From an uncultured Saprospiraceae bacterium (lineage in GTDB: Bacteria > Bacteroidota > Bacteroidia > Chitinophagales > Saprospiraceae), in the NCBI GenBank assembly GCA_937928615.1, contig CALFWI010000397.1, forward strand, positions 1 through 38,752: DNA of 38,752 nt. Reading direction: 5' to 3'. Positions 15,631 through 32,989 of this stretch are shown piece by piece. A program made the position numbers and the translations under genes. The number at the start of each line of letters is the position of its first letter. Within the stretch, counting starts at the first letter, position 1. Below the pieces are notes generated by a model. The model was not told the origin of the DNA, ran no database searches, and saw only the letters and a list, made by a program, of their open reading frames with translations.

Positions 15631-15637
15631 GCTATTA

Positions 15638-15693
15638 GTTGCCTGTTTCCAGTTGCCTGTTTTTGGTAACTGGAAACGGTTAATTGGCAACCG
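15638..15693. repeat. 7-bp word-periodic palindromic array (family A, GTTGCCT/CAGTTGC type) just after gldM stop
   Basis: gttgcct gtttcca gttgcct gtttttg | gtaactg gaaacgg ttaattg gcaaccg; arms GTTTCCAGTTGCC (15645-15657)/GGTAACTGGAAAC (15665-15677). Confidence 0.85.
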
Positions 15694-15806
15694 ACCTAAT
15701 AATATGTCAGCCTTTTAGCAAAAAGTATTTTTAAGCATAATTTTTGCAGCTTTATAGGCGTTTTAGCATTGTAATTTTTTGTAAAATTTATTTATTAAAA
15801 TCGATT

Positions 15807-16676
15807 ATGAATATTAAGTGCTTAATTGGATGTTTCTTATGTTTTTTTGCTGTCCAACTAGTAAATGCTCAAGATTTACGAACTGGAACAGAAGGGGAGT
15901 ATAAAACGGAAGCGGGCGAAGAATTTGATGCGCCTTTGGATGGTATTGTAGAAAAGAAAATCATTACTGATAGACGAGTACTACCATATGATGACATCCG
16001 AGAGGCGGATATATTCTGGGAAAAAAGAGTCTGGAGAGTGATTGATGTAAGAGAAAAATTAAATCTTCCTTTTTCTTATCCAGAAGAGCCATTCTTCTCG
16101 ATTTTAATGAAAGCTGCAGAAGAGGGAGAAATCACGGTTTATGGAACAGAAGATGATAAATTTTCTTATCCATTAGCACCTGATGAAGTAGCCTCTATGG
16201 GCGCAACAGTAGATACAATTATCGCTTTTGACCCAGAGACTTACGAAGAAGAGATTACAATTGTCAGAAATGACTTAAATCCAGAAGATATTAAACAGTT
16301 TAGAATCAAAGAAATTTGGTTTTTTGATGAAGAATCTTCTACGTTACAAGTAAGAATTCTTGGAATTGCACCATTAAAAGACGAATACGACGAGAATGGG
16401 AATTACAAATATACGACACCATTATTCTGGGCTTATTATCCTGAATGTAGAGAAATATTAGCTCGGCATAGAGTATTTAACCCAGAAAACGATGCGGATA
16501 TTACCACTTGGGAAGATTTAATGGAAGAACGTCGATTTTCTAGTTATATCATGAAACGATCAAATGTTTATGATAGAAAAGTAGAAGAATATTTGACAGG
16601 GGTAGATATGCTTTTAGAAGCAGAAAAAATCCGTATGGAAATCTTTAACTTTGAACATGACCTTTGGTCTTATTAA
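15807..16676 (+). CDS. gldN: T9SS ring component GldN
   Basis: Signal peptide MNIKCLIGCFLCFFAVQLVNAQ; DIFWEKRVWRVIDVREKLNLPFSYPEEPFFSILMKAAEEGEITVY; EIWFFDEESSTLQVRILGIAPL; WAYYPECREILARHRVFNPENDA. Start refined from 15744. Confidence 0.95.
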   Translation: MNIKCLIGCFLCFFAVQLVNAQDLRTGTEGEYKTEAGEEFDAPLDGIVEKKIITDRRVLPYDDIREADIFWEKRVWRVIDVREKLNLPFSYPEEPFFSILMKAAEEGEITVYGTEDDKFSYPLAPDEVASMGATVDTIIAFDPETYEEEITIVRNDLNPEDIKQFRIKEIWFFDEESSTLQVRILGIAPLKDEYDENGNYKYTTPLFWAYYPECREILARHRVFNPENDADITTWEDLMEERRFSSYIMKRSNVYDRKVEEYLTGVDMLLEAEKIRMEIFNFEHDLWSY

Positions 16677-16705
16677 TAAGAATTTAGACTGCTAGCCTAA
16701 GCATC

Positions 16706-16743
16706 AAAAAGCCTCAACCGATACTATTCGGTTGAGGCTTTTT
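16706..16743. terminator. Bidirectional intrinsic terminator between gldN and convergent maf
   Basis: AAAAAGCCTCAACCGA (16706-16721) / TCGGTTGAGGCTTTTT (16728-16743). Confidence 0.95.
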
Positions 16744-16807
16744 GTGTATACTAAAGTAGTTTAGATTTCTAATTTGAGTCAATTTATACAAAAATAGCTA
16801 AATTACT

Positions 16808-17407
16808 TTAGAATGCTTGCAAATACCGATAAACCAAATCAACAGGCAACCCCATTATATTACTGTAAGTTCCTTTTATTTTAGAAATTTTACACAAGCC
16901 AATCCATTCTTGAATAGCATAAGCACCAGCTTTATCATAAGGTTGGAATTTTTCGATGTAATAATCAATTTCTGTAGCGGATAATTTCTCTAGTTTTACT
17001 TTAGAAACACCAATAAAACTAACTTTTTTCTTTTTGGACAACAGACAAACACCTGTAATCACTGCATGCCACTTGCCAGATAGTTTTGTTAAAATCCGTT
17101 CTGCATCTTTTTTATCGGTAGGTTTCTCATAAATATTGTTGCCTTTGGTAACAATCGTATCTGCGGCCAAAATGATTTTGCCTTTTTTTAGAAAATCTTT
17201 GCAAGCTTTGGCTTTCTTTTCTGCTAAAAATAAAGGTACTTGTTGCGGAGTTAGCTGATTCGGATAGATTTCCTCCACATCCTTCGTTTTAATCTCAAAT
17301 TGAAAACCTGCCTCAGTCAATAATTGACTTCTTCGTGGAGACTTAGAAGCTAGGATTAATTGAGTAGTCGTTAAAACGTTCGGGATGGTATATTTAGATT
17401 TACTCAT
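16808..17407 (-). CDS. maf: Maf family nucleoside-triphosphate pyrophosphatase
   Basis: LILASKSPRRSQLLTEAGF; LAADTIV; YDKAGAYAIQEWIG; SNIMGLPV. Confidence 0.95.
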   Translation of the reverse strand: MSKSKYTIPNVLTTTQLILASKSPRRSQLLTEAGFQFEIKTKDVEEIYPNQLTPQQVPLFLAEKKAKACKDFLKKGKIILAADTIVTKGNNIYEKPTDKKDAERILTKLSGKWHAVITGVCLLSKKKKVSFIGVSKVKLEKLSATEIDYYIEKFQPYDKAGAYAIQEWIGLCKISKIKGTYSNIMGLPVDLVYRYLQAF

Positions 17408-17429
17408 TTTTTTAGTTTATTCATTCCAT

Positions 17430-17933
17430 TCATTTCGGTAACCAGACCTTCTTTAATCGAAGCACTTTTTCTATTACATCTCGAACACATCCTTCACCAC
17501 CGCCCAAAGGAGACATATATTGTGTAATGGCTCGTATTTCAGGTGCTGCATTTTTAGGACAAACGGGCAAGCCAACGATGCGCATGACTGGATAATCTGG
17601 TAAGTCATCCCCCATATAGAGGACTTGTTCGTTGTCTATTTCGTAGATCGTTTTAAATTCATCATAGGCGGCTTTTTTATCTCTTGTTTTTTCATAGATA
17701 TCAGTGATACCAATTTCTTTAAAAATAGCCGCTAATCCGTTTAAACTACCCCCTGAGATAATAGCTACCTTGTATTTATGGTCAATAGCTTTCCTCAGTG
17801 CAATTAAATCCTTGTCGTTTAATTTTCGAACAATTTTTCCGTTTTCAAAAACGAATATACTATGGTCCGTTAAGACACCGTCCACATCAAAAACAAAGGC
17901 TTTAACCCTACGGAATTTCTCTAAGTTATTCAT
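17430..17933 (-). CDS. KdsC-like HAD family phosphatase (3-deoxy-D-manno-octulosonate-8-phosphatase type)
   Basis: VKAFVFDVDGVLTDHSIF; VAIISGGSLNGL; LYMGDDLPDYPVMRIVGLPVCPKNAAPEI. Confidence 0.88.
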   Translation of the reverse strand: MNNLEKFRRVKAFVFDVDGVLTDHSIFVFENGKIVRKLNDKDLIALRKAIDHKYKVAIISGGSLNGLAAIFKEIGITDIYEKTRDKKAAYDEFKTIYEIDNEQVLYMGDDLPDYPVMRIVGLPVCPKNAAPEIRAITQYMSPLGGGEGCVRDVIEKVLRLKKVWLPK

Positions 17934-17940
17934 TGAAGGA

Positions 17941-18045
17941 AGGTATAAAGGTATAAAGGTATAAAGGTATAGAGGTATAGAGGTATAGAGGTATAGAGGT
18001 TAAATACCTTTGAACCTCTATACCTTTAAACCTATTAACCTTTCA
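17941..18045. repeat. 8-bp word-periodic array with inverted second half (family B, AGGTATAA/G ... ACCTCTAT)
   Basis: aggtataa x3, aggtatag x4, aggt (17941-18000), then acctttga acctctat acctttaa acctatta acctttca (18006-18045) in strict 8-nt phase. Confidence 0.95.
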
Positions 18046-18046
18046 T

Positions 18047-19195
18047 TTATAAATTCTGAAAAGCTTTATCTAAATCTTCGATTAAATCATCTACATCTTC
18101 TACACCAACACTTAATCGAATTAAAGAATCTGTCAAGCCTACTTTTAATCGTTCAGGTCTAGGAATAGAAGCATGGGTCATGCTAGCAGGATGCCCGATT
18201 AAAGATTCTACACCACCTAATGATTCTGCCAATGTAAATAAATGAGTATTACTTAGTACTTTTTTAGCTTCTTCATAATCATCATTTGTTAAATCAAAAG
18301 AAACCATACCACCAAAATCTCTCATTTGTGCCTTAGCAATCTTATGGTTTGGATGGTCTTTAAAGCCTGGATAATAAACTTTCCCTACTTTAGGATGAGA
18401 TTGCAAGAATTTAGCAATTTTCTTAGCATTTTTACAAGCTCGCTCTACTCTTAAATGCAGTGTTTTAATGCCCCTTAAAATTAAGAAACAATCTTGTGGT
18501 CCAGGAACTGCACCCACGGCATTTTGTATGAAATGTAAGCGATCTCCTAATTTCTTGGTTTTAGTGATAACGGCACCTAAGATTACATCTGAGTGCCCAC
18601 CTAAGTATTTTGTGGCAGAATGTAAAACCATATCTGCGCCTAAATCTAATGGATTCTGTAAGTAAGGAGAAGAAAAAGTATTATCAACACAAGTTAAGAT
18701 ACTATTGGCTTTAGCAATCTTACAAATGGCCTTGATGTCAATAATATTTAACATTGGATTAGTAGGAGTTTCAATCCAGACTAATTTAGTCTTACCTCGG
18801 CTGATATGTTTTTTGAATTGCTTCGGGTCACCCATATCAACGAAATGGGATTTAATGCCATAAGGCTCAAAAATAGTACGCATCAATCGGTAAGAACCAC
18901 CATATAAATCATTAGCTGCCAAAATCTCATCTCCAGGCTTCAATAGTTTCAAAACAGCATCCATTGCTGCTAAGCCACTAGCAAAACAAATCGCATCTTT
19001 CCCATTTTCTAGCGCCGCTAGATTTTTTTCTAAAACCGAACGAGTTGGATTTTTAGTTCTAGCATATTCAAACCCTTTATTTTTACCAGGTTCTGCTTGG
19101 GCATAAGTAGAAGTTTGGTAAATAGGGGTCATAATAGCACCTGTAGCTGGGTCTGGTTCAATACCTGCGTGGATAACTTTAGTTCCGAATTTCAT
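18047..19195 (-). CDS. Trans-sulfuration PLP enzyme (cystathionine gamma-synthase/lyase type)
   Basis: MKFGTKVIHAGIEPDPATGAIMTPIYQTSTYAQ; YARTKNPTR; DLYGGSYRLM; ETPTNPMLNI; VDNTFSSPYLQNPLDLGADMVLHSATKYLGGHSDV. Confidence 0.93.
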   Translation of the reverse strand: MKFGTKVIHAGIEPDPATGAIMTPIYQTSTYAQAEPGKNKGFEYARTKNPTRSVLEKNLAALENGKDAICFASGLAAMDAVLKLLKPGDEILAANDLYGGSYRLMRTIFEPYGIKSHFVDMGDPKQFKKHISRGKTKLVWIETPTNPMLNIIDIKAICKIAKANSILTCVDNTFSSPYLQNPLDLGADMVLHSATKYLGGHSDVILGAVITKTKKLGDRLHFIQNAVGAVPGPQDCFLILRGIKTLHLRVERACKNAKKIAKFLQSHPKVGKVYYPGFKDHPNHKIAKAQMRDFGGMVSFDLTNDDYEEAKKVLSNTHLFTLAESLGGVESLIGHPASMTHASIPRPERLKVGLTDSLIRLSVGVEDVDDLIEDLDKAFQNL

Positions 19196-19227
19196 TTTTT
19201 ATGATTAAAAATCATTCCTGAAAAATA

Positions 19228-19274
19228 AAACCTCCAAACTGCACGAATTATTTTACGAAACAATTTGGAGGTTT
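19228..19274 (-). terminator. Hairpin downstream of the transketolase-half gene / in leader of the trans-sulfuration gene
   Basis: AAACCTCCAAA (19228-19238)/TTTGGAGGTTT (19264-19274), U-rich (ttttattttt) on the minus-strand 3' side; large 25-nt loop. Confidence 0.55.
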
Positions 19275-19359
19275 ACTTAAGTATTTGACATCAGTTAGTA
19301 TATGTCAAGAATAGGAATTTTAGGAAAAAGTACTTAAGATTTTAGTTGCAAATCTCTAC

Positions 19360-19391
19360 ACCTCTGCACTTTTGTACCTTTACACCCTTTT
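19360..19391. repeat. Decayed 8-bp word array (family B words acctctgc/acttttgt/acctttac/accctttt)
   Basis: Four 8-nt phased units ending 5 bp from the transketolase-half stop codon (19397). Confidence 0.6.
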
Positions 19392-19396
19392 ATACC

Positions 19397-20356
19397 CTAT
19401 CCCTTTCTTTTAATAACTTTCTTAACAGCATCAATGACATTTTGTATGCCAAGTCCGTATTTATCTAATAATTGATCAGGTTTTCCACTTTCCCCGAAAG
19501 AATCATTGACCGCAATATATTCTTGAGGTGATGGTAAATGTTGTGCCAATACTTGAGCAACGCTATCTCCTAAACCACCATGTCGCTGATGTTCTTCCGC
19601 AGTTACGACACAACCTGTTTTTCTGACAGATTTTAAAATGGCTTCCTCATCCAAAGGCTTAATCGTATGAATATTAATTAATTCACAAGAAATGCCTTCT
19701 TTGGCCAATGCTTTTGCTGCTTCAATCGTGTGCCAAACTAGATGTCCCGTAGAAAAAATACTAACATCTGTTCCTTCACTTAACATTAAAGCTTTACCAA
19801 TTTCAAATTTTTGATTATCTGGCGTAAAAACAGGCCAGCCTGGACGACCAAAACGTAGATAAACTGGACCATAATGGTCTGCAATGGCAATCGTTGCTGC
19901 TTTGGTTTGGTTATAATCACAAGGATTGATAACCGTCATACCGGGCAACATTTTCATTAAACCAATATCCTCTAAAATTTGATGCGTAGCCCCATCTTCT
20001 CCTAAAGTCAGACCAGCATGCGAAGCACAAATTTTTACATTCTTATGCGAATAGGCAATAGACTGACGAATTTGGTCATAGACTCTACCCGTAGAGAAAT
20101 TGGCAAAAGTACCAGTATATGGAATTTTTCCACCAATAGCTAAACCTGCGGCCACGCCCATCATATTGGCTTCAGCAATACCTGCCTGATAAAACCTTTC
20201 AGGACTATCCTTAATAAATTCTTGCATTTTTAAAGAGCCAATTAAATCTGCACATAAAGCAACTACTTGGTTATTCTTCCTACCAACTTCTGCCAATCCT
20301 GCACCAAAACCATCTCTGGTTGATTTTTTACCGTTAGCGACAAGTTTATCTAACAT
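19397..20356 (-). CDS. Transketolase C-terminal subunit (split transketolase)
   Basis: TRDGFGAGLAEVGRKNNQVVALCADL; ERFYQAGIAEANMMGVAAGLA; GEDGATHQILEDIGLM; VVTAEEHQRHGGLGDSVAQVL. Lacks the TPP-binding N-terminal half. Confidence 0.93.
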   Translation of the reverse strand: MLDKLVANGKKSTRDGFGAGLAEVGRKNNQVVALCADLIGSLKMQEFIKDSPERFYQAGIAEANMMGVAAGLAIGGKIPYTGTFANFSTGRVYDQIRQSIAYSHKNVKICASHAGLTLGEDGATHQILEDIGLMKMLPGMTVINPCDYNQTKAATIAIADHYGPVYLRFGRPGWPVFTPDNQKFEIGKALMLSEGTDVSIFSTGHLVWHTIEAAKALAKEGISCELINIHTIKPLDEEAILKSVRKTGCVVTAEEHQRHGGLGDSVAQVLAQHLPSPQEYIAVNDSFGESGKPDQLLDKYGLGIQNVIDAVKKVIKRKG

Positions 20357-20367
20357 ATTTACTAATT

Positions 20368-20411
20368 AACGATGAATGATAATCCCGATAGCTATCGGGA
20401 GAACGATGAAT
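20368..20411. repeat. 18-bp perfect palindrome flanked by 10-bp direct repeats
   Basis: AACGATGAAT (20368-20377) ... TCCCGATAGCTATCGGGA (20383-20400) ... AACGATGAAT (20402-20411). Confidence 0.95.
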
Positions 20412-20574
20412 AGAAAACGCTCAAATTTAAAATAGGCAGCAAAAATAACCGATTCTTAGAGGAATACCAATTAAGTACTCTAACTAATTTAGTTTAAAAT
20501 TTAGTTTTGGTACAAATGATTGATTGTTTGGGATGCTTCAATCCTTTAATTCCTTAATCCTTCTAGCTTTGTCC

Positions 20575-21147
20575 TTACTTTACCCACCATTTATCCACAT
20601 ATTCAATTTTCTGCCCCTTCATTTTCGCAATTAACTGGGCGGGTTCAGCAGCTACCATAATACGGTCACCATGAAAATCCTTTAAAAACCCTTCTTTAAC
20701 CATATGTTGAATATGTGCTAGAAGATGGTCATAATAGCCATTTACATTTAAAATACCGATAGGTTTATCATGTAAACCTAATTGCTGCCAAGTAAACATT
20801 TCAAAGAATTCATCTAAAGTGCCAATACCACCAGGCAAGACAATAATACCTTCAGCGACGTCTACCATCTTCTGCTTTCTTTCGTGCATGGTTTCCGTAA
20901 TAATTAATTCGCTAATACCATAATGAGCGACTTCCTTGTCTACTAAGAATTGAGGAATGGTACCAATTACTTTTCCATTTTTAGATAATACGGCATCTGC
21001 TACAACTCCCATTAAACCGACATTACCTGCACCGTAGACCAAAGTAATAGCTTGTGTGCCCATTATTTCTCCCAAAACTTTGGTTGCTTCGGTATAAGCA
21101 GGATTTAAACCAGAACTAGAACCACAAAAAACGGCTATACTTTTCAT
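20575..21147 (-). CDS. LOG family / TIGR00730 Rossmann-fold nucleotide phosphoribohydrolase
   Basis: IAVFCGSSSGLNPAYTEA; LVYGAGNVGLMGVVADA; MHERKQKM; VLPGGIGTLDEFFEMFTWQQLGLHDKPIGILN. Confidence 0.95.
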   Translation of the reverse strand: MKSIAVFCGSSSGLNPAYTEATKVLGEIMGTQAITLVYGAGNVGLMGVVADAVLSKNGKVIGTIPQFLVDKEVAHYGISELIITETMHERKQKMVDVAEGIIVLPGGIGTLDEFFEMFTWQQLGLHDKPIGILNVNGYYDHLLAHIQHMVKEGFLKDFHGDRIMVAAEPAQLIAKMKGQKIEYVDKWWVK

Positions 21148-21235
21148 ATTGACTTTATTTTAGTGAAAATGGAGGAACTATCCATTTTTCGGAATAGTTC
21201 CAACGTGACCGCAAAGTAAGGAAATAAATTTCAAA

Positions 21236-21544
21236 TTATTCCTGTTCTTTCAAATGAGCCTCCAAATCATCTAATTTATCCAACCAGAATAATTCATATT
21301 GGCGCACCCATTTATAGACTTCCTCTAAAGGGGCTAAAGCTAAGGTGCAAATTCGTTCTCGCCCTTGTTTTTCAATCGTAATCAATGCCGATGCTTCCAA
21401 AATTTTTAACTGTTTGGAGATGGCTGGTCGACTAATTTTAAAATTTTCGGCAATGGTATTCACACTTTGTGGTGCTTTATTCAGTACTTCAATAATCTGT
21501 CGCCTAGTAGGGTCGGCTAATGCTTGCCAAGGGTCTCGTCTCAT
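21236..21544 (-). CDS. ArsR family winged-helix transcriptional regulator
   Basis: DPWQALADPTRRQIIEVLNKAPQSVNTIAENFKISRPAISKQLKILEASALITIEKQGRERICTL. Confidence 0.93.
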   Translation of the reverse strand: MRRDPWQALADPTRRQIIEVLNKAPQSVNTIAENFKISRPAISKQLKILEASALITIEKQGRERICTLALAPLEEVYKWVRQYELFWLDKLDDLEAHLKEQE

Positions 21545-21616
21545 ATTTTATTAGTTTAAATGGTAAAAACTCATGGAGTAATTACCATTTTTATTTTAAA
21601 AATTTACTGCAACAGC

Positions 21617-22072
21617 CTATTGTAACAAATGTTTTGTCAGTTTCTTCCGTAACATACTTTTCCAGCCAAAATTCAAAATTTGTCGAGTAAACCAACCGCC
21701 AAATCCTTCAAAACCAGCATGGGAAAGCGTCAAGAGCGTTTCATTTTTGGCCAATTCTTTGAGTTCCCAAGTAACAATGGTTGGTTTTTTCATGCCATTG
21801 GCTTGCCAAGAATAAGTGATGGAATTAGGTTGACTAAAAGATAAGACTTTGCAATGGACAATGCCATCCCAACCGCCTTGCGGTTTAGCTCTAAATTGAA
21901 AAATTTGACCTTCTCGCAATTCAAAATCAGTTGTTTGCATTAACCAATTAGATAAAGCAGCTTTGGTCGTTAACGCAGTCCACAGCTTATTAATGTCATG
22001 TTTATAAACACGTTTAATGTGGATTTGAGGTTTGGTAGTGGTGGTCGTTTGATTTAAAGTCATTACAGACAT
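21617..22072 (-). CDS. SRPBCC / AHSA1 (Activator of Hsp90 ATPase homolog 1-like) domain protein
   Basis: IHIKRVYKHDINKLWTALTTKAALSNWLMQTTDFELREGQIFQFRAKPQGGWDGIVHCKVLSF; upstream of arsR on the same strand. Confidence 0.88.
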   Translation of the reverse strand: MSVMTLNQTTTTTKPQIHIKRVYKHDINKLWTALTTKAALSNWLMQTTDFELREGQIFQFRAKPQGGWDGIVHCKVLSFSQPNSITYSWQANGMKKPTIVTWELKELAKNETLLTLSHAGFEGFGGWFTRQILNFGWKSMLRKKLTKHLLQ

Positions 22073-22123
22073 AATAATTAATTTTAAAAGATGAAGTAAA
22101 AATAAGCATAATTACTTAAAAGA

Positions 22124-22170
22124 GTAACTAATTGGTTACAAATATATAAGTAACCGATTAGTTACGCAAA
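22124..22170 (-). promoter_or_regulatory. Bacteroidetes-type promoter (TTTG-N20-TATATTTG) overlapped by paired operator GTAACYNATTNGTTAC
   Basis: Plus-strand coordinates: site 1 GTAACTAATTGGTTAC 22124-22139; -7 element complement CAAATATA 22139-22146; site 2 GTAACCGATTAGTTAC 22150-22165; -33 complement CAAA 22167-22170. Confidence 0.75.
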
Positions 22171-22265
22171 TATTTTTATTATTATTTTTTGAAACAGTAG
22201 ATAATTTTCTGTTTTTTCAAAAAAAAACTATCTTTAGTCGGTATTCTAATGCATAACCAATAATT

Positions 22266-25200
22266 ATGAGTCGTTTCTATTTTTTTGCTTTTTTAATCAC
22301 GCTTTTTGTATTTAGTTGCGAACCAGCTATTCCAGAGAATTTGGAAGTAGCTTATCAAGGTTTGCCAGAAAAAATTGATTTTAATTTGCATGTCCGACCC
22401 ATTTTGTCTGACCGTTGTTGGTCTTGTCACGGGCAAGATGAAGCAGCTAGAAAAGCCAACTTAAGATTAGATCAAGCAACAACTGCTTTTGCGCCCTTAA
22501 CAGAAAGTGACGGTTTTGCGCTAGTCAAAGGAAGCCTTAGAAAAAGTGAAGTGTTTCATCGAATTATTTCAGCAGACCCTGAATATCAGATGCCTACACC
22601 AGCAAGTCATTTGACCTTGAATGCCACCGAAAAAGCAACGATTATTAAATGGATTCAACAAGGCGCTGAATGGAAAGATCATTGGGCATTTATCCCACCT
22701 CAAAAGCCAGTCATACAGAAAATAAAAAAAGAGGGCTGGATTCAAAATAATGCCATAGACCAATTTATTCAAAACAAATTAGTTGCCCAACAACTAACAC
22801 CTGCTCCCATAGCAGATAAGGAAAGATTGCTCAGAAGAGTCTATATGGACCTAACGGGCTTGCCACCAACAATAGCAGCAATAGATGCTTTTTTAGCCGA
22901 TAATAGTGCAAACGCCTTTGAAAAAGTAGTAGACGAATTATTACAGACCGATGCTTATGCCGAACGAATGACCATGGAATGGATGGATTTATCCAGATAT
23001 GCTGATTCTCATGGGATGCATGCGGATGGTGCAAGATTGATGTGGCCTTGGCGAGATTGGGTGATTGAAAGTTTTAAACAAAATAAATCCTATGACCAAT
23101 TTGTTACCGAACAATTAGCAGGAGATTTATTGCCAAATGCGACTAAAGCGCAAAAATTAGCAACGGCTTTTAATCGAAATCATGCTATGACCGCAGAGGG
23201 TGGGGCAGTAGATGAGGAATTTCGATTAGAATACGTTTTTGACCGTTCTAATACGACTGCCACTGCATTTTTGGGTTTAACGATGGAATGTGCCCGCTGT
23301 CATGACCATAAATTTGACCCTTTTTCCCAAGATGAATTTTATCAATTTGCGGCCTTTTTTAATAATGTCAAAGAATTGGGGATGACGGGAGACGATGGGA
23401 ATTATGGCCCGATGTTAACTTTACCTGATGCAGTCACGGAAGCCAAATTAACGGAAATAAATGCCCGTATTCAAGCAAAAGAACAGGAACTAGCATTAAC
23501 TAAAAAACAACTAGCGGAGCAAGGCACGTTTATTAAACAATTGATTAGTCACACGCCACGGCGACCAAAAGACATGGTTGGGTATTTTCCTTTTGATAGG
23601 ATGAAGGCTTATATTAATAAAGGAAAACGGCCAGCAAAATACTTTGATGGGAATAAAAAATGTACGTCCCGAGGCGCACCAGTATTAGTAGACGGAAAAA
23701 AAGGACAAGCCATTACTTTTCCAGCTGGTTATGATGAAGTTTATTTAAGCGATATGGGTTTATTTGAAATGACCGAACCTTTCTCGGTAGGTGCTTGGAT
23801 ATATTTGACGGAAGACGACCGAGAAAAGACGCAAGTAATAGTTGGCAATGCAGGCGAAAAGAATAATTTTTGGCGAGGCTGGGATTTTTATTTAGATACG
23901 TTAAACAGAGTTTCTACTCGGTTAATTCATTCCTTGCCCCATAATTACCTGCATCAGCGTAGTCAAAATGCGGTCCCTTTAAATACTTGGACACATGTAG
24001 CGTTTACATATGATGGTTCTGGAAAAGCGGCAGGGGTCGAATTATTTATGAATGGTTTACCTATCGCAAGTGAGGTTGCTTTTGATAACCTCTATAAAAA
24101 TATCCATCCTGTAAAAGTGGGCAATCATGAATTAAATAATACGCCTTTAAGAGTAGGGAAGAGCTATCGAAATTATACAGGAGAAAGCGGTTTTTTCAAA
24201 GGAAAATTGGATGAATTAATGATTTTTGACCGTCAAATCACTCCTTTAGAAATCCAATGGATAGCAGATGTAACGGACATTAAGGACGAAGCACAATTAT
24301 TAGAGGAATATAAAATTACCCAACAACGACCCGTTAAAAAAATAAAGAGGGAATTACAACAATTGCGAACAGCACGATTGGAATTAATGAACCCCATAAT
24401 GGAGGTAATGGTCATGGAAGAAACACCAGAGAACCGTCCAATGCATGTGTTAAATAGAGGCGTATACGACCAGCCTAAGCATACGGTAGAAATGGCGACT
24501 CCTACTAAAGTATTGGCTTTTTCCGAAGAATTTCCCGCCAATAGATTAGGTTTATCCCAATGGTTGTTTAATGAAAAAAATCCCTTAACGGCAAGGGTTG
24601 CCGTCAATCGTTATTGGCAATTGATATTCGGCAGAGGATTGGTGAGCACTCCACAAGATTTTGGTAGCCAAGGGGCCTTACCAAGCCATCCAGAATTATT
24701 AGATTATTTGGCGGTTTCTTTTCGTGAAAATGGGTGGGATTTAAAAGCATTATTAAAAGAAATGGTCTTATCGCATACCTATCAGCAGGATTCGAGGGCA
24801 ACGGCTGAATTAATGGAAAAGGATCCATTGAATAGCTGGTTGTCCAGAAGTTCCAGTTATCGCTTACCTGCGGAAATGATTCGGGATAATGCCTTGAAAG
24901 CAAGTGGCCTACTCGTAGAAAAGATTGGTGGTGAAAGTGTCAAACCTTACCAACCAGAAGGTTTATGGATTGATTTAGGCAATTTCTCTCATCAACTGTT
25001 GCATTATAAAGAAGATGAAGGCGATAAGTTATATCGACGTAGTTTATACACTTTTGTGAGGCGAACGTCTCCACCTCCTTTTATGACCACTTTTGATGTC
25101 TCTTCCAGAGATAAATGTGTGGTACAAAGGGAACAAACGAATACGCCTTTGCAAGCCTTATTATTATTAAATGACCCCCAATTTGTAGAAGCGGCTAGAG

Positions 25201-25490: not shown

Positions 25491-25554
25491 AGTAGGGGAG
25501 AATCCTAAATCGACTCATTTACTTTAAATCAAGTTGCGGATAATTGTTGGTGTG

Positions 25555-25595: not shown

Positions 25596-25665
25596 TTAAC
25601 CCCATTAGCAATAAAACAATAGAACCATTTCAATTTTTTCGCTACTTGGATTATTTACTTATGCT

Positions 25666-25697
25666 CTCATTTACTCATTTATTCATCCTCTCATTCT
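25666..25697. repeat. 8-bp word array (CTCATTTA type) abutting DUF1501 start codon
   Basis: ctcattta ctcattta ttcatcct ctcattct then tctcct-ATG(25704). Confidence 0.65.
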
Positions 25698-25703
25698 TCT
25701 CCT

Positions 25704-27164
25704 ATGTACTGTAAGAACTACGAAAAAATCCATTCTAGAAGGTCCTTCCTAGCTAAGTCAGCGATGGGACTAGGGGCTGCAGCTTTAGCTACTTTTCTAA
25801 ATCCAATAACTACTTTAGGAAATCATCCAAATATAAATAACCTGCCTTTTAATGGCGGTATTTTAGGCAAACCACATTTTGCGCCAAAAGCTAAAAGAGT
25901 CATTTATTTATTTCAAAGTGGTGGGCCTTCTCAGTTGGATTTATTTGACCCGAAACCTTTATTAAAGAAAAGGAATGGGGAGAATTTGCCTGACTCTGTT
26001 CGTGGTGGGCAGCGATTAACAGGGATGTCAGGAGGGCAAGCAAGTTTCCCCTTAGCAGGATCCATTTTTGATTTTAAACAAAGCGGGCAAAGTGGAGCTT
26101 GGGTAAGTGAATTAATGCCGCATACGGCAAAAATTGTGGATGATTTATGCTTTATAAAATCCATGTATACCGAGGCGATTAACCATGACCCTGCCATTAC
26201 TTTTATGCAAACGGGGAGTCAATTACCTGGTCGTCCTTCTATCGGTTCTTGGTTGAATTATGGTTTAGGCTCTGATAATGAAAATTTGCCAGGCTTCGTC
26301 GTTTTAGTCACTAAAAATAAATACGGGCAACCATTATATTCCAGATTATGGGGCAATGGATTTTTACCCTCAGAACATCAAGGCGTGCAGTTTAGAGCGG
26401 GAAAAGACCCTGTTTTGTATTTGAATAACCCAGCTGGGATGACCAATTTATCTCGTCGAGACCAGTTAAATTATTTAAAAAAATTACAAGAAATACAGTT
26501 TGAACAAATAGCCGACCCCGAAATTGAAGCTCGAATTGCCCAATATGAAATGGCTTATCGCATGCAAACTTCTGTCCCTGAAGTAACGGATACTTCGGGA
26601 GAACCAGACTATATTTATGACATGTATGGAGCCGATAGTCGAATACCTGGAACTTATGCTGCCAATGCTTTATTAGCGAGACGATTAGCAGAAAAAGAGG
26701 TGAAATTCATTCAGTTATATCATCAAGGTTGGGACCAACATGGTGCTTTACCAAGTGCCATCAAAAAACAATGTAAAGAAACCGACCAAGCAACGGCTGC
26801 CCTCATTACCGACTTGAAACAAAGAGGTTTATTAGAGGATACATTGGTTATATGGGGCGGGGAATTTGGCAGGACCAGCTATTCTCAAGGACAATTAACG
26901 GTAGATAATTATGGTAGAGACCATCACCCCAAATGTTTTACGATGTTTATGGCGGGGGCAGGCGTTAAAGCAGGTTTCTCCTTTGGGACAACGGATGATT
27001 TTGGCTATAATGTGCAAACAAATGGGGTGCATGTTCACGATTTTCAAGCGACTTTAATGCATTTATTAGGCATCAATCATGAACAGATGACTTTCAAATT
27101 TCAGGGAAGGCGCTATCGGTTAACGGATGTGCATGGGAAGGTGGTGAAGGATATATTAGCTTAA
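25704..27164 (+). CDS. DUF1501 family protein with twin-arginine signal
   Basis: HSRRSFLAKSAMGLGAAALATFLNP Tat motif; AKRVIYLFQSGGPSQLDLFDPKP; LVIWGGEFGRTSYSQG; YGRDHHPKCFTMFMAGAGVKAGFSFGTTDDFGY. Confidence 0.95.
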   Translation: MYCKNYEKIHSRRSFLAKSAMGLGAAALATFLNPITTLGNHPNINNLPFNGGILGKPHFAPKAKRVIYLFQSGGPSQLDLFDPKPLLKKRNGENLPDSVRGGQRLTGMSGGQASFPLAGSIFDFKQSGQSGAWVSELMPHTAKIVDDLCFIKSMYTEAINHDPAITFMQTGSQLPGRPSIGSWLNYGLGSDNENLPGFVVLVTKNKYGQPLYSRLWGNGFLPSEHQGVQFRAGKDPVLYLNNPAGMTNLSRRDQLNYLKKLQEIQFEQIADPEIEARIAQYEMAYRMQTSVPEVTDTSGEPDYIYDMYGADSRIPGTYAANALLARRLAEKEVKFIQLYHQGWDQHGALPSAIKKQCKETDQATAALITDLKQRGLLEDTLVIWGGEFGRTSYSQGQLTVDNYGRDHHPKCFTMFMAGAGVKAGFSFGTTDDFGYNVQTNGVHVHDFQATLMHLLGINHEQMTFKFQGRRYRLTDVHGKVVKDILA

Positions 27165-27224
27165 GTTTAATATTTTTTAGTATTTTCGTACTAATTTTTA
27201 CAAATACATAAAACACCTTATATA

Positions 27225-28532
27225 ATGAAGCGACAATTATTTTCCTTATTATTTTTGCTAACTATTGCTGTTTTAACCTTTGCGCAATCGGCAAAAGGCG
27301 GTTTAGCGCAAGCTGCACCCGCAGAAGTTGGGATGTCTGCCAAACGATTAGCTTTATTAGATGCCCATATCCAAAAATATATTGGAGAAGGGACCATGCC
27401 TGGCGGTGTATTTTTAATTGCTCGAAAAGGAAAAACAGTTTATTATAAAAATTTCGGACATACAGGGCTTGATAAAAAAGACGCCTACCAAAAGGATAAC
27501 ATTTTCCGTTTGGCTTCGATGACTAAGGCAGTGACTACGGTTTCGATTATGCAGTTATTTGAGCAAGGAAAACTAGGATTGGATGATCCTATTTTTTACT
27601 ATATTCCAGGCTTTGCGAAGACGCAGGTATTAGATACTTTTAATCCAGCAGATTCTAGTTATACAACAGTTCCTTTGGAGCGTCCAGTTACTATTCGGCA
27701 CTTATTGACGCATTCTTCGGGGATTTCTTATGGGGCTTTTAATCCTGGAAAAATTCAGGCAATTTATGAGAAAAATAATGCCAATCAATTTGGCTTGTCT
27801 CATCCAACCATGACTACTGCTCAAATGGCGGAACAAATTGCTAAAGCACCACTTATTTATCAACCGGGGACGCAATATATGTATGGTTTGAATATGGAAA
27901 TTTTAGGTAGAATAGTAGAAGTAGTTTCGGGAATGCCCTTAAATCAGTATTTCAAAAAGAATGTTTTTGACCCACTTGGGATGGATGATACACGTTTTTA
28001 TTTGGCCAAAGATAAACATGACCGTATAGTTCCTATTTATACCTATAATAAGGAAAAACAAATGATCATGGCGGATAAATCTTCTGGTATTGATCCTGAC
28101 TATCCTATGTTTGCCGATAATAATCATTATGCTGGTGGTGGTGGATTGTCTGGAACAACTATGGATTATGCTAAGTTTATTCAGGCACTTTGCAATGGGG
28201 GAAGTTATAATGGCGTAAGGATATTGGGTAGAAAAACCATTGATGTCATGACTTCTGACCAATTAATTCGACAAAATGAAAATGGAAAAGGATTTAGTCA
28301 GAAACCAGGCTTAACTTATGGTTTAGGTTTCTCACTAAAAACAGCAGCAGGACAAGCGATTAACCCTAAATCTCCTGGTACTTACGAATGGGGTGGCGCA
28401 TTTAATACGAAATTTTTTATTGACCCTGCTGAAGAATTAACCTTCGTTGGCATGACTCAAATTATTCCTTTTGTCCGTCCTGATTTTTGGGATAAGCTAT
28501 ATGCTATTATTTATGGGGCGATAGAGGAGTAG
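27225..28532 (+). CDS. Beta-lactamase family serine hydrolase (class C/PBP-like), signal peptide
   Basis: MKRQLFSLLFLLTIAVLTFAQ; RLASMTKAVTTVSIMQL (SxxK); PVTIRHLLTHSSGI; YMYGLNMEILGRIVEVVSG (YxN). Confidence 0.94.
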   Translation: MKRQLFSLLFLLTIAVLTFAQSAKGGLAQAAPAEVGMSAKRLALLDAHIQKYIGEGTMPGGVFLIARKGKTVYYKNFGHTGLDKKDAYQKDNIFRLASMTKAVTTVSIMQLFEQGKLGLDDPIFYYIPGFAKTQVLDTFNPADSSYTTVPLERPVTIRHLLTHSSGISYGAFNPGKIQAIYEKNNANQFGLSHPTMTTAQMAEQIAKAPLIYQPGTQYMYGLNMEILGRIVEVVSGMPLNQYFKKNVFDPLGMDDTRFYLAKDKHDRIVPIYTYNKEKQMIMADKSSGIDPDYPMFADNNHYAGGGGLSGTTMDYAKFIQALCNGGSYNGVRILGRKTIDVMTSDQLIRQNENGKGFSQKPGLTYGLGFSLKTAAGQAINPKSPGTYEWGGAFNTKFFIDPAEELTFVGMTQIIPFVRPDFWDKLYAIIYGAIEE

Positions 28533-28533
28533 G

Positions 28534-28613
28534 AGGTTCAAAGGTATAGAGGTAATAAGGTATAGAGGGATGCCCTTTTGTACCTTGTTACCTCTAAACC
28601 CATTTACCTTTCT
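28534..28613. repeat. 8-bp word-periodic array with inverted second half (family B) filling a convergent spacer
   Basis: aggttcaa aggtatag aggtaata aggtatag agggatgc ccttttgt accttgtt acctctaa acccattt acctttct; arms TAGAGGTAATAAGGTA (28547-28562)/TACCTTGTTACCTCTA (28581-28596). Confidence 0.9.
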
Positions 28614-29144
28614 TCACCACTCAAACTTACCTAAATGTACTTGCCGAATCCCTTTTTTTCTATCTTCAAAATACCGTTTTAGCGTAAATTTAGAAGAAGG
28701 AAAGGCGATATCATCCCAAGGAATTTCTTCCTCTGTAAATAGTTTTATTTCTGTACTTTCTGGGGTGAGTTGATAATCTAAAGCCTGCAAATCTGCCAAA
28801 AAATGCATATAAACTTGGTTGATTCTAGGAATACTATAGACCATGTGTAGGCTAGTAATGGTTATTTTAGAAAGCGTTTCTTCGTACACTTCTCTAATAG
28901 CCCCTGCTTCTACGGTTTCCCCATTTTCCATATAGCCACCAGGGACATTCCAATAACCTTTCCGAGGCTCGATGCCTCTTTTACACAACATGACCTTATC
29001 TTCCCAGATTGGCAAAGCACCTGTGACAATGTTTGGGTTTTGGTAGTGAATGGTCTCACAATTATCACAAACATATCGGGGGCGGTGGTCGTCTGGTACA
29101 GGTTTTAAGGTGACTTCATGACCGCATTTGCTACAAAATTTCAA
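28614..29144 (-). CDS. NUDIX hydrolase with N-terminal zinc ribbon
   Basis: KFCSKCGHE...YVCDNCETIHYQNP; GGYMENGETVEAGAIREVYEET Nudix box. The ORF track start at 29306 lies upstream of a 42-bp tandem repeat; a TTG at 29142-29144 gives the conserved MKFCSKCG start. Confidence 0.88.
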   Translation of the reverse strand: MKFCSKCGHEVTLKPVPDDHRPRYVCDNCETIHYQNPNIVTGALPIWEDKVMLCKRGIEPRKGYWNVPGGYMENGETVEAGAIREVYEETLSKITITSLHMVYSIPRINQVYMHFLADLQALDYQLTPESTEIKLFTEEEIPWDDIAFPSSKFTLKRYFEDRKKGIRQVHLGKFEW

Positions 29145-29158
29145 AATATTTGCGTTTA

Positions 29159-29373
29159 GTAACACAGCTCTCTGAGCTGCGAAATGTATTAAAATGTGAT
29201 GTAACACAGCTCTCTGAGCTGTGAAATGTATTAAAATGTGATGTAACACAGCTCTCTGAGCTGTGAAATAAGGTACAAGTTGATAGAAAATATACAGTTT
29301 TACCAAAATGTTAGAAAACTAATTTATAGTTGGTAAGATACTATTCTTTTCACAATTCAGAGAGCTGTCTTAC
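29159..29373. mobile_element. MITE-like repeat: three 42-bp direct repeats with a CACAGCTC-TCT-GAGCTGTG hairpin plus one inverted end
   Basis: gtaacacagctctctgagctg(t/c)g at 29159, 29201, 29243 (period 42); inverted copy CACAATTCAGAGAGCTGTCTTAC 29351-29373 (20/23 match). Confidence 0.65.
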
Positions 29374-30100
29374 CTATGACTTTCTCCAAATCCTCAGGCG
29401 TATCAATCCCAATTGTTTCAATATCAGTCAAACCAATCCCAATCTTATACCCATTTTCCAACCAGCGTAATTGTTCTAAGGATTCTGCTTTTTCTAAAGC
29501 ACTCATAGGTAATTTAGCAATCGCTAAAAGTGTTGCTTTTCGGTAACCGTAAAGCCCAATATGTTTATAAAAAGCATGTGAATTGACCCAATCTTCTTGT
29601 TGACTATTTCTTAAAAAAGGAATTGGACTACGACTAAAATACTGAGCAATATTTGTTTGATTAAAGACGACTTTGACCGTATTCGGACTAAATATTTGCG
29701 CTGATTCAGTGATTCTTTTAGCTAAAGTGGCTATGTTTAGGGCTGTATTCTGTTTTAATTGTTGAACGACAAGGTCAATCTGCTTTGGATTAATAAATGG
29801 TTCATCCCCTTGAATGTTTACGATAGCTTCCATATCTTGGAAGCACATTGCTACTTCTGCACAACGATCAGTGCCACTTTGGTGGCTAGAATTGGTCATA
29901 ATAACTTGACCCCCAAAAGATTGTACGTGATTAAAGATGCGTTCATCATCTGTAGCAATAATAACTTTAGAGAGCGTTTTCGCTTTACAAGCTTGCAAAT
30001 AAACGCGTTGAATCATGGTTTTGCCATTAATATCCACTAAAGGTTTCCCCGGAAACCGAGTGGAAGCAAAACGAGAAGGGATGATACCAAGCGTTAGCAT
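29357..30100 (-). CDS. kdsB: 3-deoxy-manno-octulosonate cytidylyltransferase (CMP-KDO synthetase)
   Basis: MLTLGIIPSRFASTRFPGKPLVDINGKTMIQRVY; VIIATDDERI; SGTDRCAEVA; NIQGDEPFI; IGLYGYRKATL; LEQLRWLENGYKIGIGLT. Confidence 0.96.
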   Translation of the reverse strand: MLTLGIIPSRFASTRFPGKPLVDINGKTMIQRVYLQACKAKTLSKVIIATDDERIFNHVQSFGGQVIMTNSSHQSGTDRCAEVAMCFQDMEAIVNIQGDEPFINPKQIDLVVQQLKQNTALNIATLAKRITESAQIFSPNTVKVVFNQTNIAQYFSRSPIPFLRNSQQEDWVNSHAFYKHIGLYGYRKATLLAIAKLPMSALEKAESLEQLRWLENGYKIGIGLTDIETIGIDTPEDLEKVIGKTAL

Positions 30101-30204
30101 AAGCTTTATAATGATTATTAGACTTGTGACTTTTTCATTGAGTTATTTTTCAAAAAGGAACAAATCTATTTTTAAAAGAGAAAATTACACTAATATTCTG
30201 ACAA

Positions 30205-31071
30205 ATGAACAAATGGATTTTATGGGCGGCATTATTTTGCTTGCCGTTAAACATGCATGGGAAAACAACTGAAGACTATACAGGTGATAGTCTTAGTTAT
30301 CTAACTCCACAAGATACAATTTTTCTCTCAGCTGGTTCGTATGGGCAAAAAGTTTTTACGCATATCATGGAACCCAAGCAAACACTTTATTCCCTTGCCA
30401 AGTTTTACGGATTAACTTTAGATGAGTTGTATTTTTACAACCCTAAAAATGAGGGAGGGCGATATGGAACAGGAAGCCGAATAAAAATTCCTATTCCCAA
30501 CCGAAGCATTATTCGGTACAAACCAGTAGATTACTCGCCTTATTTGTATGTGCCTATTTATTACGTGGTAAAAAAAGGGGAAACGATGTATCATGTGGCT
30601 CAACGGTTGTTCAAATTGCCGATAGATACCATCATGGATAGAAACAATTTAATAGAACCCGTTTTATCAGTTGGGCATAAATTATTCATTGGTTGGATGG
30701 ACGTTTATGGCGTACCAGATTCCTACAGGCAATTTAAGGGGCATCCATTATGGCAAAAGAGTTATGCTTATAAACGGAAATATTACGCCCAAAAGCGAAG
30801 AAAAAAAGAATACCGTAGAAAAGGCCCTGCTGTATATATCAACGGGACTAAAAGTACTTCTGACTTATTGGTGATGCATAAATACGCACCCGTTGGGTCG
30901 ATTGTCCAAATTACCAACCCCATGAAAAAACGGACACTCTATGCAAAAGTGATTGCTAAAACGCCACCTGCTTACGATGTGAATGTAGAAATTGTCGTTT
31001 CTCCAAGGGTTGGGAAAATGCTAGGAGTTAGAGATAAGAAGTTTTATGTAAAAACGAGGTATTTGAGGTAG
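30205..31071 (+). CDS. Secreted LysM-domain protein with C-terminal RlpA-like double-psi domain
   Basis: Signal peptide; two LysM (HIMEPKQTLYSLAKFYGLTLDELYFYNP and YVVKKGETMYHVAQRLFKLPIDTIMDRN); C-terminal MHKYAPVGSIVQITNPMKKRTLYAKVIAKTPP. Confidence 0.85.
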   Translation: MNKWILWAALFCLPLNMHGKTTEDYTGDSLSYLTPQDTIFLSAGSYGQKVFTHIMEPKQTLYSLAKFYGLTLDELYFYNPKNEGGRYGTGSRIKIPIPNRSIIRYKPVDYSPYLYVPIYYVVKKGETMYHVAQRLFKLPIDTIMDRNNLIEPVLSVGHKLFIGWMDVYGVPDSYRQFKGHPLWQKSYAYKRKYYAQKRRKKEYRRKGPAVYINGTKSTSDLLVMHKYAPVGSIVQITNPMKKRTLYAKVIAKTPPAYDVNVEIVVSPRVGKMLGVRDKKFYVKTRYLR

Positions 31072-31537
31072 TTAGCAGTATTACAGTTTCCAGTTGGACG
31101 AATGTCCATGCCTAATATAGTTTGACGGCAAACTTCCAAATTTTTAGCTGAAAAGACAATAAACATTGGATGATAAACGGTTAGTTGAATATTCTCCGAG
31201 GTAAAAAAACTATGGTAGCATTTATCCATGTTAAGAAAATCTGTGGGGAAACCAAATCCGTGGGGAAATTAAAGGGTATCTCCTAGTGGGCTTCATTCTA
31301 GATAAAAAATCAGCGTTAAAACATTCGGAATACCTATCATCTTAGAAAAAAAATAGGCCTACTTTTGCGTCGCTTTGCAAATAGGAGGTATTTATAGTAA
31401 ACAAATAGAACTCATTTCCTTTTTTTTCGTTCCTCTTGCAAAGTAGTAGGTTGCTATTGTCAAACTTTAAGTGAGTCAGTACCCACACCTACCTACAAAG
31501 TAGCTAATCAAAACCTTTTATCAAATAAATCAGATTC

Positions 31538-32893
31538 ATGTATCACGAAAATATCCTAAAAACTATAGGAGACACCCCATTGATTCAAATCAATAAAATT
31601 GCAAAAGATATTCCAGCATTGGTTTTGGTAAAATTAGAAACGACCAATCCAGGGCATTCTATTAAAGACCGAATGGCCTTAAAAATGTTAGAAGACGCAG
31701 AGAAAAGAGGGGACATATTACCTGGTGGAACAATTATAGAATGTACTTCTGGTAATACAGGGATGGGCTTAGCGATTGCGGCTTGTGTCAAAGGCTATAA
31801 ATCTATCTTTACCACGAGTGACAAACAAAGTAAAGAGAAATTTGATTTATTAAAAGCGATGGGTTCAGAAGTTATTGTCTGCCCAACCAATGTAGAACCG
31901 ACGGATCCACGATCTTATTATTCGGTGGCAGAAAAATTGAGTAAGGAAATTCCCAATTCTTTTTGGTGCAATCAGTACGATAATTTATCTAATCGTCAAG
32001 CACATTATGAGTCTACAGGACCAGAAATTTGGGAACAAACGGAAGGCAAAATCACTCATATGGTGGTTGGTGTAGGGACAGGGGGCACCATTTCAGGTAC
32101 CTCAAAATACCTAAAGGAAAAGAACAAAGACATTAAAGTCATCGGTATTGATACTTATGGTTCTGTTTTTAAAAAATATCACGAAACAGGCGAATTTGAT
32201 GAGAAGGAGATTTATCCATATATCACGGAAGGGATTGGAGAAGATATTCTACCTAAAAATGTAGATTTTAGTTTAATTGACCATTTTGAAAAGGTCACTG
32301 ATAAGGATGGGGCTTTAATGTGTCGAAGATTGGCTAGAGAAGAAGGCATGTTATTAGGCTATTCTGCGGGGTCGGCTTTTGCAGGTTTATTGCAAATCAA
32401 AGACCAATTGACAAAAGATGATGTCGTTGTCGTTATTATTCATGACCACGGAAGTCGTTATGTCGGAAAAATCTATAATGATGATTGGATGCGAGAAAGA
32501 GGCTTTTTAGAAGATGATTTGACTGTAAAAGATATGATTTCGGCTAAAAATGGAGAGAAGTTTATTTCTGTTAGTCCTACTGATACGGTTCGGTCAGTTT
32601 TTAATTTGATGAAGGAAAAGGATATTTCTCAATTACCAGTTGTCGAAGAAAAAGCAATCATTGGTTCTGTTACAGAAAGTGCAGTCCTAACTTATTTATT
32701 GGAAAATCCTTTAAAGAATACGGAAAATCAAATCAAAACGATTATGGGAACGCCCTTCCCTTTAGTTGCAGAAGATTTACCTGTCAAAAGTTTAACCAGA
32801 TACATTAGTAAAGAAATACCTGCAGTGGTCGCTCAAGATAAAGCGGGCAACATGCATATTTTAACACAGTACGATATTATTCAGACGGTTTAA
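31538..32893 (+). CDS. Cystathionine beta-synthase (PLP fold type II + CBS domain pair)
   Basis: NILKTIGDTPLIQINKIAKDIPALVLVKLETTNPGHSIKDRMALKML; ECTSGNTGMGLAIAAC; GVGTGGTISGTSKYLKE; YSAGSAFAG; C-terminal CBS pair (VKDMISAKNGEKFISVSPTDTVRSVFNLM). Confidence 0.94.
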   Translation: MYHENILKTIGDTPLIQINKIAKDIPALVLVKLETTNPGHSIKDRMALKMLEDAEKRGDILPGGTIIECTSGNTGMGLAIAACVKGYKSIFTTSDKQSKEKFDLLKAMGSEVIVCPTNVEPTDPRSYYSVAEKLSKEIPNSFWCNQYDNLSNRQAHYESTGPEIWEQTEGKITHMVVGVGTGGTISGTSKYLKEKNKDIKVIGIDTYGSVFKKYHETGEFDEKEIYPYITEGIGEDILPKNVDFSLIDHFEKVTDKDGALMCRRLAREEGMLLGYSAGSAFAGLLQIKDQLTKDDVVVVIIHDHGSRYVGKIYNDDWMRERGFLEDDLTVKDMISAKNGEKFISVSPTDTVRSVFNLMKEKDISQLPVVEEKAIIGSVTESAVLTYLLENPLKNTENQIKTIMGTPFPLVAEDLPVKSLTRYISKEIPAVVAQDKAGNMHILTQYDIIQTV

Positions 32894-32901
32894 GCGGTTA
32901 T

Positions 32902-32989
32902 CAGTTGCGAGTTACCAGTTGCCAGTTGCCAGTTTGACGGGTAACTGGCAACCCGTAACTGGCAACTGGTAACTAACAACCCGCAACAC
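32902..32989. repeat. 7-bp word-periodic palindromic array (family A) just after cystathionine beta-synthase stop
   Basis: cagttgc gagttac cagttgc cagttgc cagtttg acgg gtaactg gcaaccc gtaactg gcaactg gtaacta acaaccc gcaacac; 18-bp perfect arms 32910-32927/32957-32974. Confidence 0.95.

What the first reader, a model, noticed from the sequence alone, without database searches (positions are those of the whole stretch)
15638..32989. Word-periodic palindromic arrays: intergenic spacers made of a 7- or 8-nt word repeated, then its reverse complement repeated, next to stop codons
Seen directly: family A (7-nt phase, CAGTTGC/GTAACTG words) at 15638-15693 and 32902-32989; family B (8-nt phase, AGGTATAG/ACCTCTAT words) at 17941-18045, 28534-28613 and, decayed, 19360-19391. 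Each array begins or ends within about 15 nt of a stop codon, two almost exactly fill the spacer, and the four well-preserved ones fold into a long hairpin because the word switches to its reverse complement at mid-array. The word period (7 versus 8) is conserved within a family although individual letters vary. Two unrelated words sharing one architecture suggests a generating process (slippage plus template switching, or a non-autonomous element) and possibly a shared 3'-UTR role such as termination, mRNA stabilisation or insulation. I know of no named element class with this layout, so the novelty is inference.
Basis: partly seen in the sequence, partly recalled or inferred. Interest (0 to 1): 0.75.

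Follow-up and report, generated by a model that had tools for sequence, protein, structure and literature searches.

The report
Word-built hairpins at bacterial gene ends
In this marine Saprospiraceae lineage about one gene gap in eight carries a hairpin built from a repeated 7- or 8-letter DNA word set just after a stop codon; related species use different words, and between facing genes these hairpins occur where ordinary transcription terminators are missing.

Summary
The arrays are real. Four of the five fold into hairpins (-29 to -54 kcal/mol); the fifth (19360) is one decayed arm. They belong to genome-wide families: 143 hits for AGTTRCC and 58 for AGGTATAR in the draft genome, against 0 for reversed patterns. 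An unbiased scan finds such arrays in 26 of 209 spacers, 1 of 1045 shuffled spacers and 0 of 1084 coding segments, with periods 7 and 8 and their doubles. They abut stop codons (23 of 30 within 15 nt; 11.9 expected) and avoid divergent spacers (0 of 47).

Words are lineage-specific: GTAATAR occurs only in three sister species, GTCATTR mainly in another. After gldM all eight species examined have a hairpin, with different words. Some families share a loop across loci, so whole hairpins were copied. Each family has one polarity (57 of 57), and adjacent family-A words are less alike than chance, which argues against simple slippage.

Arrays lack T-runs, yet convergent spacers holding one almost never hold a canonical terminator (2 of 35 versus 39 of 85). 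Best reading: a REP-like class of dispersed 3'-end hairpins made of heptamer/octamer words, serving as RNA 3'-end boundaries. That function is inferred. Related heptamer repeats are known in Nostoc, Xanthomonas and Beggiatoaceae.

The parts
15637..15692 (.). Array A1: AGTTGCC-type 7-nt words, loop, reverse-complement words; 6 nt after the gldM stop
17940..18043 (.). Array B1: 8-nt AGGTATAR words (8 copies), short loop, reverse-complement words; fills the 113-nt spacer between a Cys/Met PLP enzyme stop and a HAD hydrolase start (both minus strand)
19356..19396 (.). Array B3: single decayed pyrimidine-strand arm with 8-nt phase, next to the transketolase stop; no hairpin
28533..28613 (.). Array B2: 8-nt words, exactly fills the gap between two convergent stop codons (beta-lactamase-like / Nudix); no canonical terminator in the spacer
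32896..32987 (.). Array A2: 7-nt AGTTRCC words with a 14-nt superperiod, loop AGTTTGACG, reverse-complement words; 2-3 nt after the PALP-CBS stop
13981..15630 (+). gldM, upstream neighbour of A1
   Evidence: Pfam GldM domains
15807..16676 (+). gldN, downstream neighbour of A1; the block between array and gldN is 97% identical in G006 while the array is not
16710..16748 (.). Canonical bidirectional T-tailed terminator hairpin between gldN and maf, kept in four relatives: the ordinary alternative to an array

Best explanation
The arrays are dispersed, palindromic 3'-end elements. A 7- or 8-nt word is repeated towards a short loop and answered by its reverse complement. SHOWN: they occupy about an eighth of intergenic spacers in the unbiased sample; they sit just behind stop codons; the word set differs between sister species; each of the two families tested has one polarity; some families share a loop across loci; between convergent genes they occur where canonical terminators are missing. 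INFERRED: (1) The transcribed hairpin marks and protects the mRNA 3' end. RNA polymerase would be stopped by other means, for example Rho, and 3'-to-5' exonucleases would trim back to the hairpin. In operons the hairpin would shield the upstream cistron. This needs a stem but no fixed sequence and no T-run, and it works in both directions. (2) New sites arise by copying of whole hairpins between gene ends. Arms change by gain or loss of whole words and are kept alike by hairpin-mediated template switching and/or selection for pairing, so the word 'dialect' drifts while the stem persists.
For: Genome-wide excess. Stop anchoring and avoidance of divergent spacers. Eight of eight gldM 3' ends carry a stem with z from -4.5 to -10.7 although the words differ. 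Eight of nine G000 arrays keep an array or hairpin in the closest relative. Canonical terminator in 2/35 array versus 39/85 other convergent spacers, length-matched expectation 15.9, unbiased contigs 0/8 versus 14/24, robust to defining arrays by period alone. Copying: one polarity in 57/57, shared loops. Arm coupling in family A, P = 0.0015. Literature: Rho-terminated ends in E. coli are trimmed by exonucleases (PMC7815308); template switching can create and maintain stems (PMC8794818).
Against: No excess of G.U over A.C mismatches on the transcribed strand (83 versus 106), so no direct sign of selection on RNA. Genus-wide, retention of a stem with unrelated sequence is about what independence predicts (29 versus about 26). 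Arm coupling is absent in family B. No transcript data. The exclusion with terminators treats related arrays as independent sites.
Confidence: 0.5

Rival explanations
1. Selfish or neutral dispersed palindromic repeats with no function. Copies land anywhere and survive only behind stop codons, because coding and promoter regions do not tolerate them.
For: Whole-hairpin copies with a shared loop at unrelated loci; rapid turnover of words and presence/absence between species (40 partners without a hairpin); no RNA-strand signature.
Against: Median distance to the stop of 4 nt even where the free spacer is long; depletion of canonical terminators in array-bearing convergent spacers is not expected from neutral insertion.
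Confidence: 0.33
2. Purely local mutation products: replication slippage makes the tandem words and template switching makes the second arm, separately at each locus.
For: Period sharply at 7-8, which has been linked to polymerase slippage for heptamers (cited in PMC4692102); template switching can build stems (PMC8794818).
Against: Same words at many loci in one genome and none in others; one polarity; shared loops; adjacent words less alike than shuffled order; arms not mirror copies word by word.
Confidence: 0.08
3. DNA-level elements, such as cruciform or nucleoid/gyrase sites like E. coli BIMEs, acting on supercoiling between genes rather than on RNA.
For: Strand-symmetric mismatches; convergent spacers, where positive supercoils meet, have the highest share of arrays (21% versus 14% co-directional).
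Against: Anchoring to stop codons rather than to spacer middles; words differ, so no fixed protein site; no binding data.
Confidence: 0.09

Closest known systems
GGGAATC / GGGGA(C/T)T heptamer repeats of Xanthomonas and Nostoc (PMC4692102), and cyanobacterial tandem heptanucleotides (STRR; that name from memory)
   Same: Degenerate tandem 7-nt words, intergenic, close to gene ends, under-represented between divergent genes, mostly at the same gene pairs in related species but variable in length and sequence. Nostoc and Brasilonema plasmids carry AGTTACC-, GTCATTG- and ACAGTGA-type words, in Brasilonema just after a stop codon.
   Different: Those papers describe one word per genome and stress G-quadruplexes or direct repeats. 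Here the rule is a word array followed by its reverse complement, 7- and 8-nt words coexist, and word sets are swapped between sister species.
TAACTGA direct repeats (MacGregor 2015, PMC4679880)
   Same: Heptamer arrays in intergenic spacers, including five Bacteroidetes; TAACTGA is the reverse complement of TCAGTTA, a variant of the AGTTRCC word found here (AGTTATC).
   Different: In Beggiatoaceae they are direct repeats just upstream of start codons, with one inverted case in 170; here they are palindromic and follow stop codons.
REP / BIME elements and their RAYT transposases (PMC3733652, PMC2817692)
   Same: High-copy extragenic palindromes, between convergent and co-directional genes, close to or overlapping stop codons, proposed to act on mRNA.
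   Different: REPs have a conserved 20-40-nt sequence with a GTAG or CGTC tag. Here stems are built from a repeated word, words differ between loci and species, and Y1 transposase counts do not track arrays.
Intrinsic (T-tailed) terminators
   Same: Hairpin behind the stop codon; arrays occur where these are missing.
   Different: No T-tract after the stem, stems much longer, and word periodicity.

Membership tests
REP / BIME with RAYT | High-copy palindrome located in convergent or co-directional spacers near stop codons | tested here: met
   0/47 divergent, 10/47 convergent, 30/216 co-directional; 23/30 within 15 nt of the stop
REP / BIME with RAYT | One conserved 20-40-nt sequence with GTAG or CGTC tag | tested here: not met
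   Stems are word-periodic and words differ by locus and species; no tag is apparent by eye in the array alignments
REP / BIME with RAYT | Cognate RAYT (Y1_Tnp) in the genome | tested here: inconclusive
   0-7 PF01797 matches per genome; G003 (82% complete) has none but 169 GTAATAR hits
Bacterial heptamer tandem repeats (STRR, GGGAATC, TAACTGA) | Tandem degenerate 7-nt units in intergenic spacers at many loci | tested here: met
   but 8-nt families are as common as 7-nt ones
Bacterial heptamer tandem repeats (STRR, GGGAATC, TAACTGA) | Predominantly direct repeats of one word per genome | tested here: not met
   Word followed by its reverse complement in 57/57 A and B arrays counted as pairs; many words per genome
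Intrinsic terminator | T-tract directly after the stem | tested here: not met
   4/53 arrays with at least 5 T in 6 within 12 nt; background about 12%
MITE | Fixed terminal inverted repeats and target-site duplication at insertion | tested here: inconclusive
   Arms vary in length and word; no clean empty site was found among matched G000-G006 gene ends, so duplications could not be scored
Rfam RNA family | Match above gathering score | tested here: not met
   No match in the window

The most novel reading that the evidence does not exclude
A 3'-end hairpin system that is indifferent to sequence: a lineage keeps a vocabulary of 7-8-nt words, writes them as palindromes behind stop codons in place of T-tailed terminators, and replaces the vocabulary between sister species by a copying process that needs no known transposase and homogenises both arms of each hairpin. 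The same kind of vocabulary recurs in cyanobacteria.
Probability: 0.33. Interest if true: 0.78.

Novelty: new variant of a known kind. Interest (0 to 1): 0.58.

Why it matters
If arrays really stand in for terminators, a sizeable share of transcript ends in these bacteria would be missed by terminator prediction, which looks for a T-tail. Stems that stay while their letters change wholesale would be a good natural case for how hairpins are born and kept alike by template switching. The overlap with long-unexplained heptamer repeats in cyanobacteria, Xanthomonas and Beggiatoa suggests one testable explanation (3'-end hairpins) for at least part of those repeats.

Tried and rejected
Intrinsic terminator: rejected, no T-run. 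RAYT-driven REP: no correlation seen. Word-by-word mirror copying between arms: weak in family A in the first set (3/200), not significant in the larger set (P = 0.19), none in B. Simple slippage: adjacent words anti-correlated in A. RNA-level wobble signature: absent. Conserved position with swapped word as a genus-wide rule: not above independence once inherited pairs are removed. In the terminator test, requiring a reverse-complement word outside the periodic run left few arrays and no significance at most thresholds (second rows), because the run itself often spans both arms; the period-only rows are the cleaner test. BLAST against plasmids for cross-phylum relatives: enterobacterial hits cover about half the query and look like unrelated repeats (not examined); the cyanobacterial hits are informative. 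Rfam: nothing. Promoter scan of the window: not above shuffles.
Full report
WHERE IT IS. The window is the whole contig C397 of a 3.7-Mb, 467-contig, 55% complete draft genome. GldM and GldN genes and the nearest named relatives place it in Saprospiraceae (Bacteroidota). One congener in the search set, G006, appears to be MAG CPBay_Spr30G08_47: its contig C68 has the same length, 64325, as JAFMDF010000015.1.

OBSERVATION. All four good arrays are as described and fold strongly. The fifth (19360) is a single decayed arm. A1 follows gldM, A2 a PALP-CBS gene, B2 lies between convergent stops of a beta-lactamase-like and a Nudix gene, and B1 lies between a Cys/Met PLP enzyme stop and a HAD hydrolase start.

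GENOME-WIDE. AGTTRCCAGTTRCCAGTT gives 143 hits and AGGTATARAGGTATARAGG 58 in this genome, with 0 for the reversed patterns. A word-blind scan of spacers shows an excess of periodic and of palindromic sequence, with best periods 7, 8 and 14 (G006 sample: period score at least 14 in 22 spacers versus 1.2 in shuffles; inverted-repeat score at least 16 in 36 versus 0). With one combined definition, arrays are in 26/209 spacers, 1/1045 shuffled spacers and 0/1084 coding segments; periods 7, 8, 14 and 16 account for 25 of 26. The words are many: AGTTRCC, AGGTATAR, ATCATAA, AATTTTC, ATTGTTTT, GTTACCAT, GATGAAT, AGAGAAT and others. Other Saprospiraceae genera have arrays with their own words.

POSITION. 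In unbiased contigs arrays are in 0/47 divergent, 10/47 convergent and 30/216 co-directional spacers. In co-directional spacers 23/30 begin within 15 nt of the upstream stop (11.9 +/- 1.8 by random placement, none of 2000 trials as high), while closeness to the next start is at chance.

WORDS CHANGE, STEMS STAY (SOMETIMES). Behind gldM, all eight species in which the locus was found have stems, with AGTTGCC, TCAGAAG, GTCATTA or GTAATAG-type words and z-scores from -4.5 to -10.7. In G000 versus G006 the block after the array is 97% identical, while the array part (0.73) is hardly above shuffled arrays (0.69). Words are lineage-specific: GTAATAR only in G003, G004 and G008 (169, 55 and 17 hits), GTCATTR mostly in G001 (93). 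Between the closest pair (G000, G006) eight of nine G000 arrays have an array or hairpin at the same gene end. Genus-wide, however, a partner of an array-bearing gene end has an array in 32, another hairpin in 20, none in 40 and a short spacer in 5 cases. After removing pairs that share an 8-mer, both-hairpin pairs (29) are close to what independence gives (about 26, my arithmetic from the counts). So gldM is a striking case, not a proven rule.

HOW THEY ARISE. Families have one polarity: 44/44 A and 13/13 B arrays run AGTT or AGGT towards the loop, none the other way. Loops are shared in part: 13 of 63 family-A centres hold a TGACG/ACGTAC/CGTACT core, and the 7-mer ACGTACT occurs in 6 versus 0.6 expected. 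Two G000 copies with the exact loop GTTTGACGTACTAAAC have arms in another dialect, GGTTATC/GGTTGTC. Seven G006 arrays share the loop CTGTCACGYTTTAYTTAGRTGG, with ATCATAA arms of different lengths and one missing its 5' arm; the same search finds none in the other eight genomes. A similar loop (CACGCTTT...TAGATGGAT) occurs in L075 from another species. This is copying of whole hairpins. Within family A the two arms of an array share word variants more than arms drawn from different arrays (0.675 versus 0.645, P = 0.0015), but not in B. Adjacent words in A are less alike than shuffled order (column 5: 0.357 versus 0.447, 0/1000), giving a two-word superperiod; B shows no such effect. Simple slippage predicts the opposite. 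Avoidance of perfect, unstable repeats or an ancestral 14-nt unit would fit.

WHAT THEY DO. They are not T-tailed terminators (4/53 with a T-tract, below background) and show no excess of G.U over A.C mismatches on the transcribed strand (83 versus 106). Yet they occur where terminators are missing. Between convergent genes a canonical T-tailed terminator is present in 39/85 spacers without an array and 2/35 with one (p = 1.2e-5); the length-matched expectation is 15.9, and in unbiased contigs it is 0/8 versus 14/24. The result holds when arrays are defined by period alone (4/41 versus 37/79, p = 3.5e-5; spacers of at least 111 nt 3/17 versus 22/46, p = 0.04). At the PALP-CBS gene end, some relatives have word arrays (L075, L076) and others a T-tailed hairpin (L080, L087, L093, L105). 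I therefore favour a 3'-end boundary role: RNA polymerase is stopped some other way, probably by Rho, and exonucleases trim to the stem. In E. coli, Rho-terminated ends are known to be processed by exonucleases (PMC7815308). This step is inference.

KNOWN RELATIVES. Heptamer repeats hugging gene ends are known in Xanthomonas and Nostoc (PMC4692102), TAACTGA heptamers in Beggiatoaceae and others (PMC4679880), and REPs share the placement (PMC3733652). Brasilonema and Nostoc plasmids carry the same kind of word. I found no report of the palindromic word layout as the rule, of word replacement between sister species, or of exclusion with terminators; the literature search covered open-licence papers only.

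CAVEATS. All genomes are drafts. Arrays in one genome are related, so the p-values treat non-independent sites as independent. Several thresholds were tried. Some contigs were chosen because they hold arrays; unbiased subsets are named where used (they include the window itself, which was flagged for its arrays).

Noticed in passing
window 29159-29269 and 29343-29373: A 42-bp unit with the palindrome ACAGCTCTCTGAGCTGT in 2.6 tandem copies (98%) plus an inverted copy, at the 5' end of the Nudix ORF as first listed; the real start is probably about 29015. The same palindrome occurs in a G006 spacer (L186).
   Followed up: partly
window 7685-7868: A 21-bp tandem repeat (8.8 copies, 95%) inside the 2971-aa ORF 30-8945, in frame as a 7-residue repeat.
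   Followed up: no
window 22123-22173: Two inverted copies of GTAACTAATTGGTTAC in a divergent promoter region; looks like a regulator operator.
   Followed up: no
L169 6382-6526 and many places in all nine genomes: A separate high-copy, sequence-conserved palindromic repeat family (GTCGTCTGGAGACGAC / CCAAGTCTGGAGACTTGG) coexists with the word arrays in the genus; a REP-like candidate for the few Y1 transposases.
   Followed up: partly
window 19230-19277: A conserved hairpin (AAACCTCCAAACTG...CAATTTGGAGGTTT) upstream of the Cys/Met PLP enzyme gene, kept in G006, G005 and G002 while its surroundings diverge; a possible leader terminator or attenuator.
   Followed up: no
L242 (Pontibacter kalidii plasmid), about 806-1063: A long, nearly perfect tandem array of AATAAGTAAGAATT units between mobC and the relaxase gene; not palindromic, possibly oriT-associated.
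   Followed up: no
G006:C68 (L155), spacer after the PALP-CBS gene: The A2 orthologue has its two arms pushed apart by about 100 nt that form an inner stem of their own, as if another hairpin had entered the loop.
   Followed up: no
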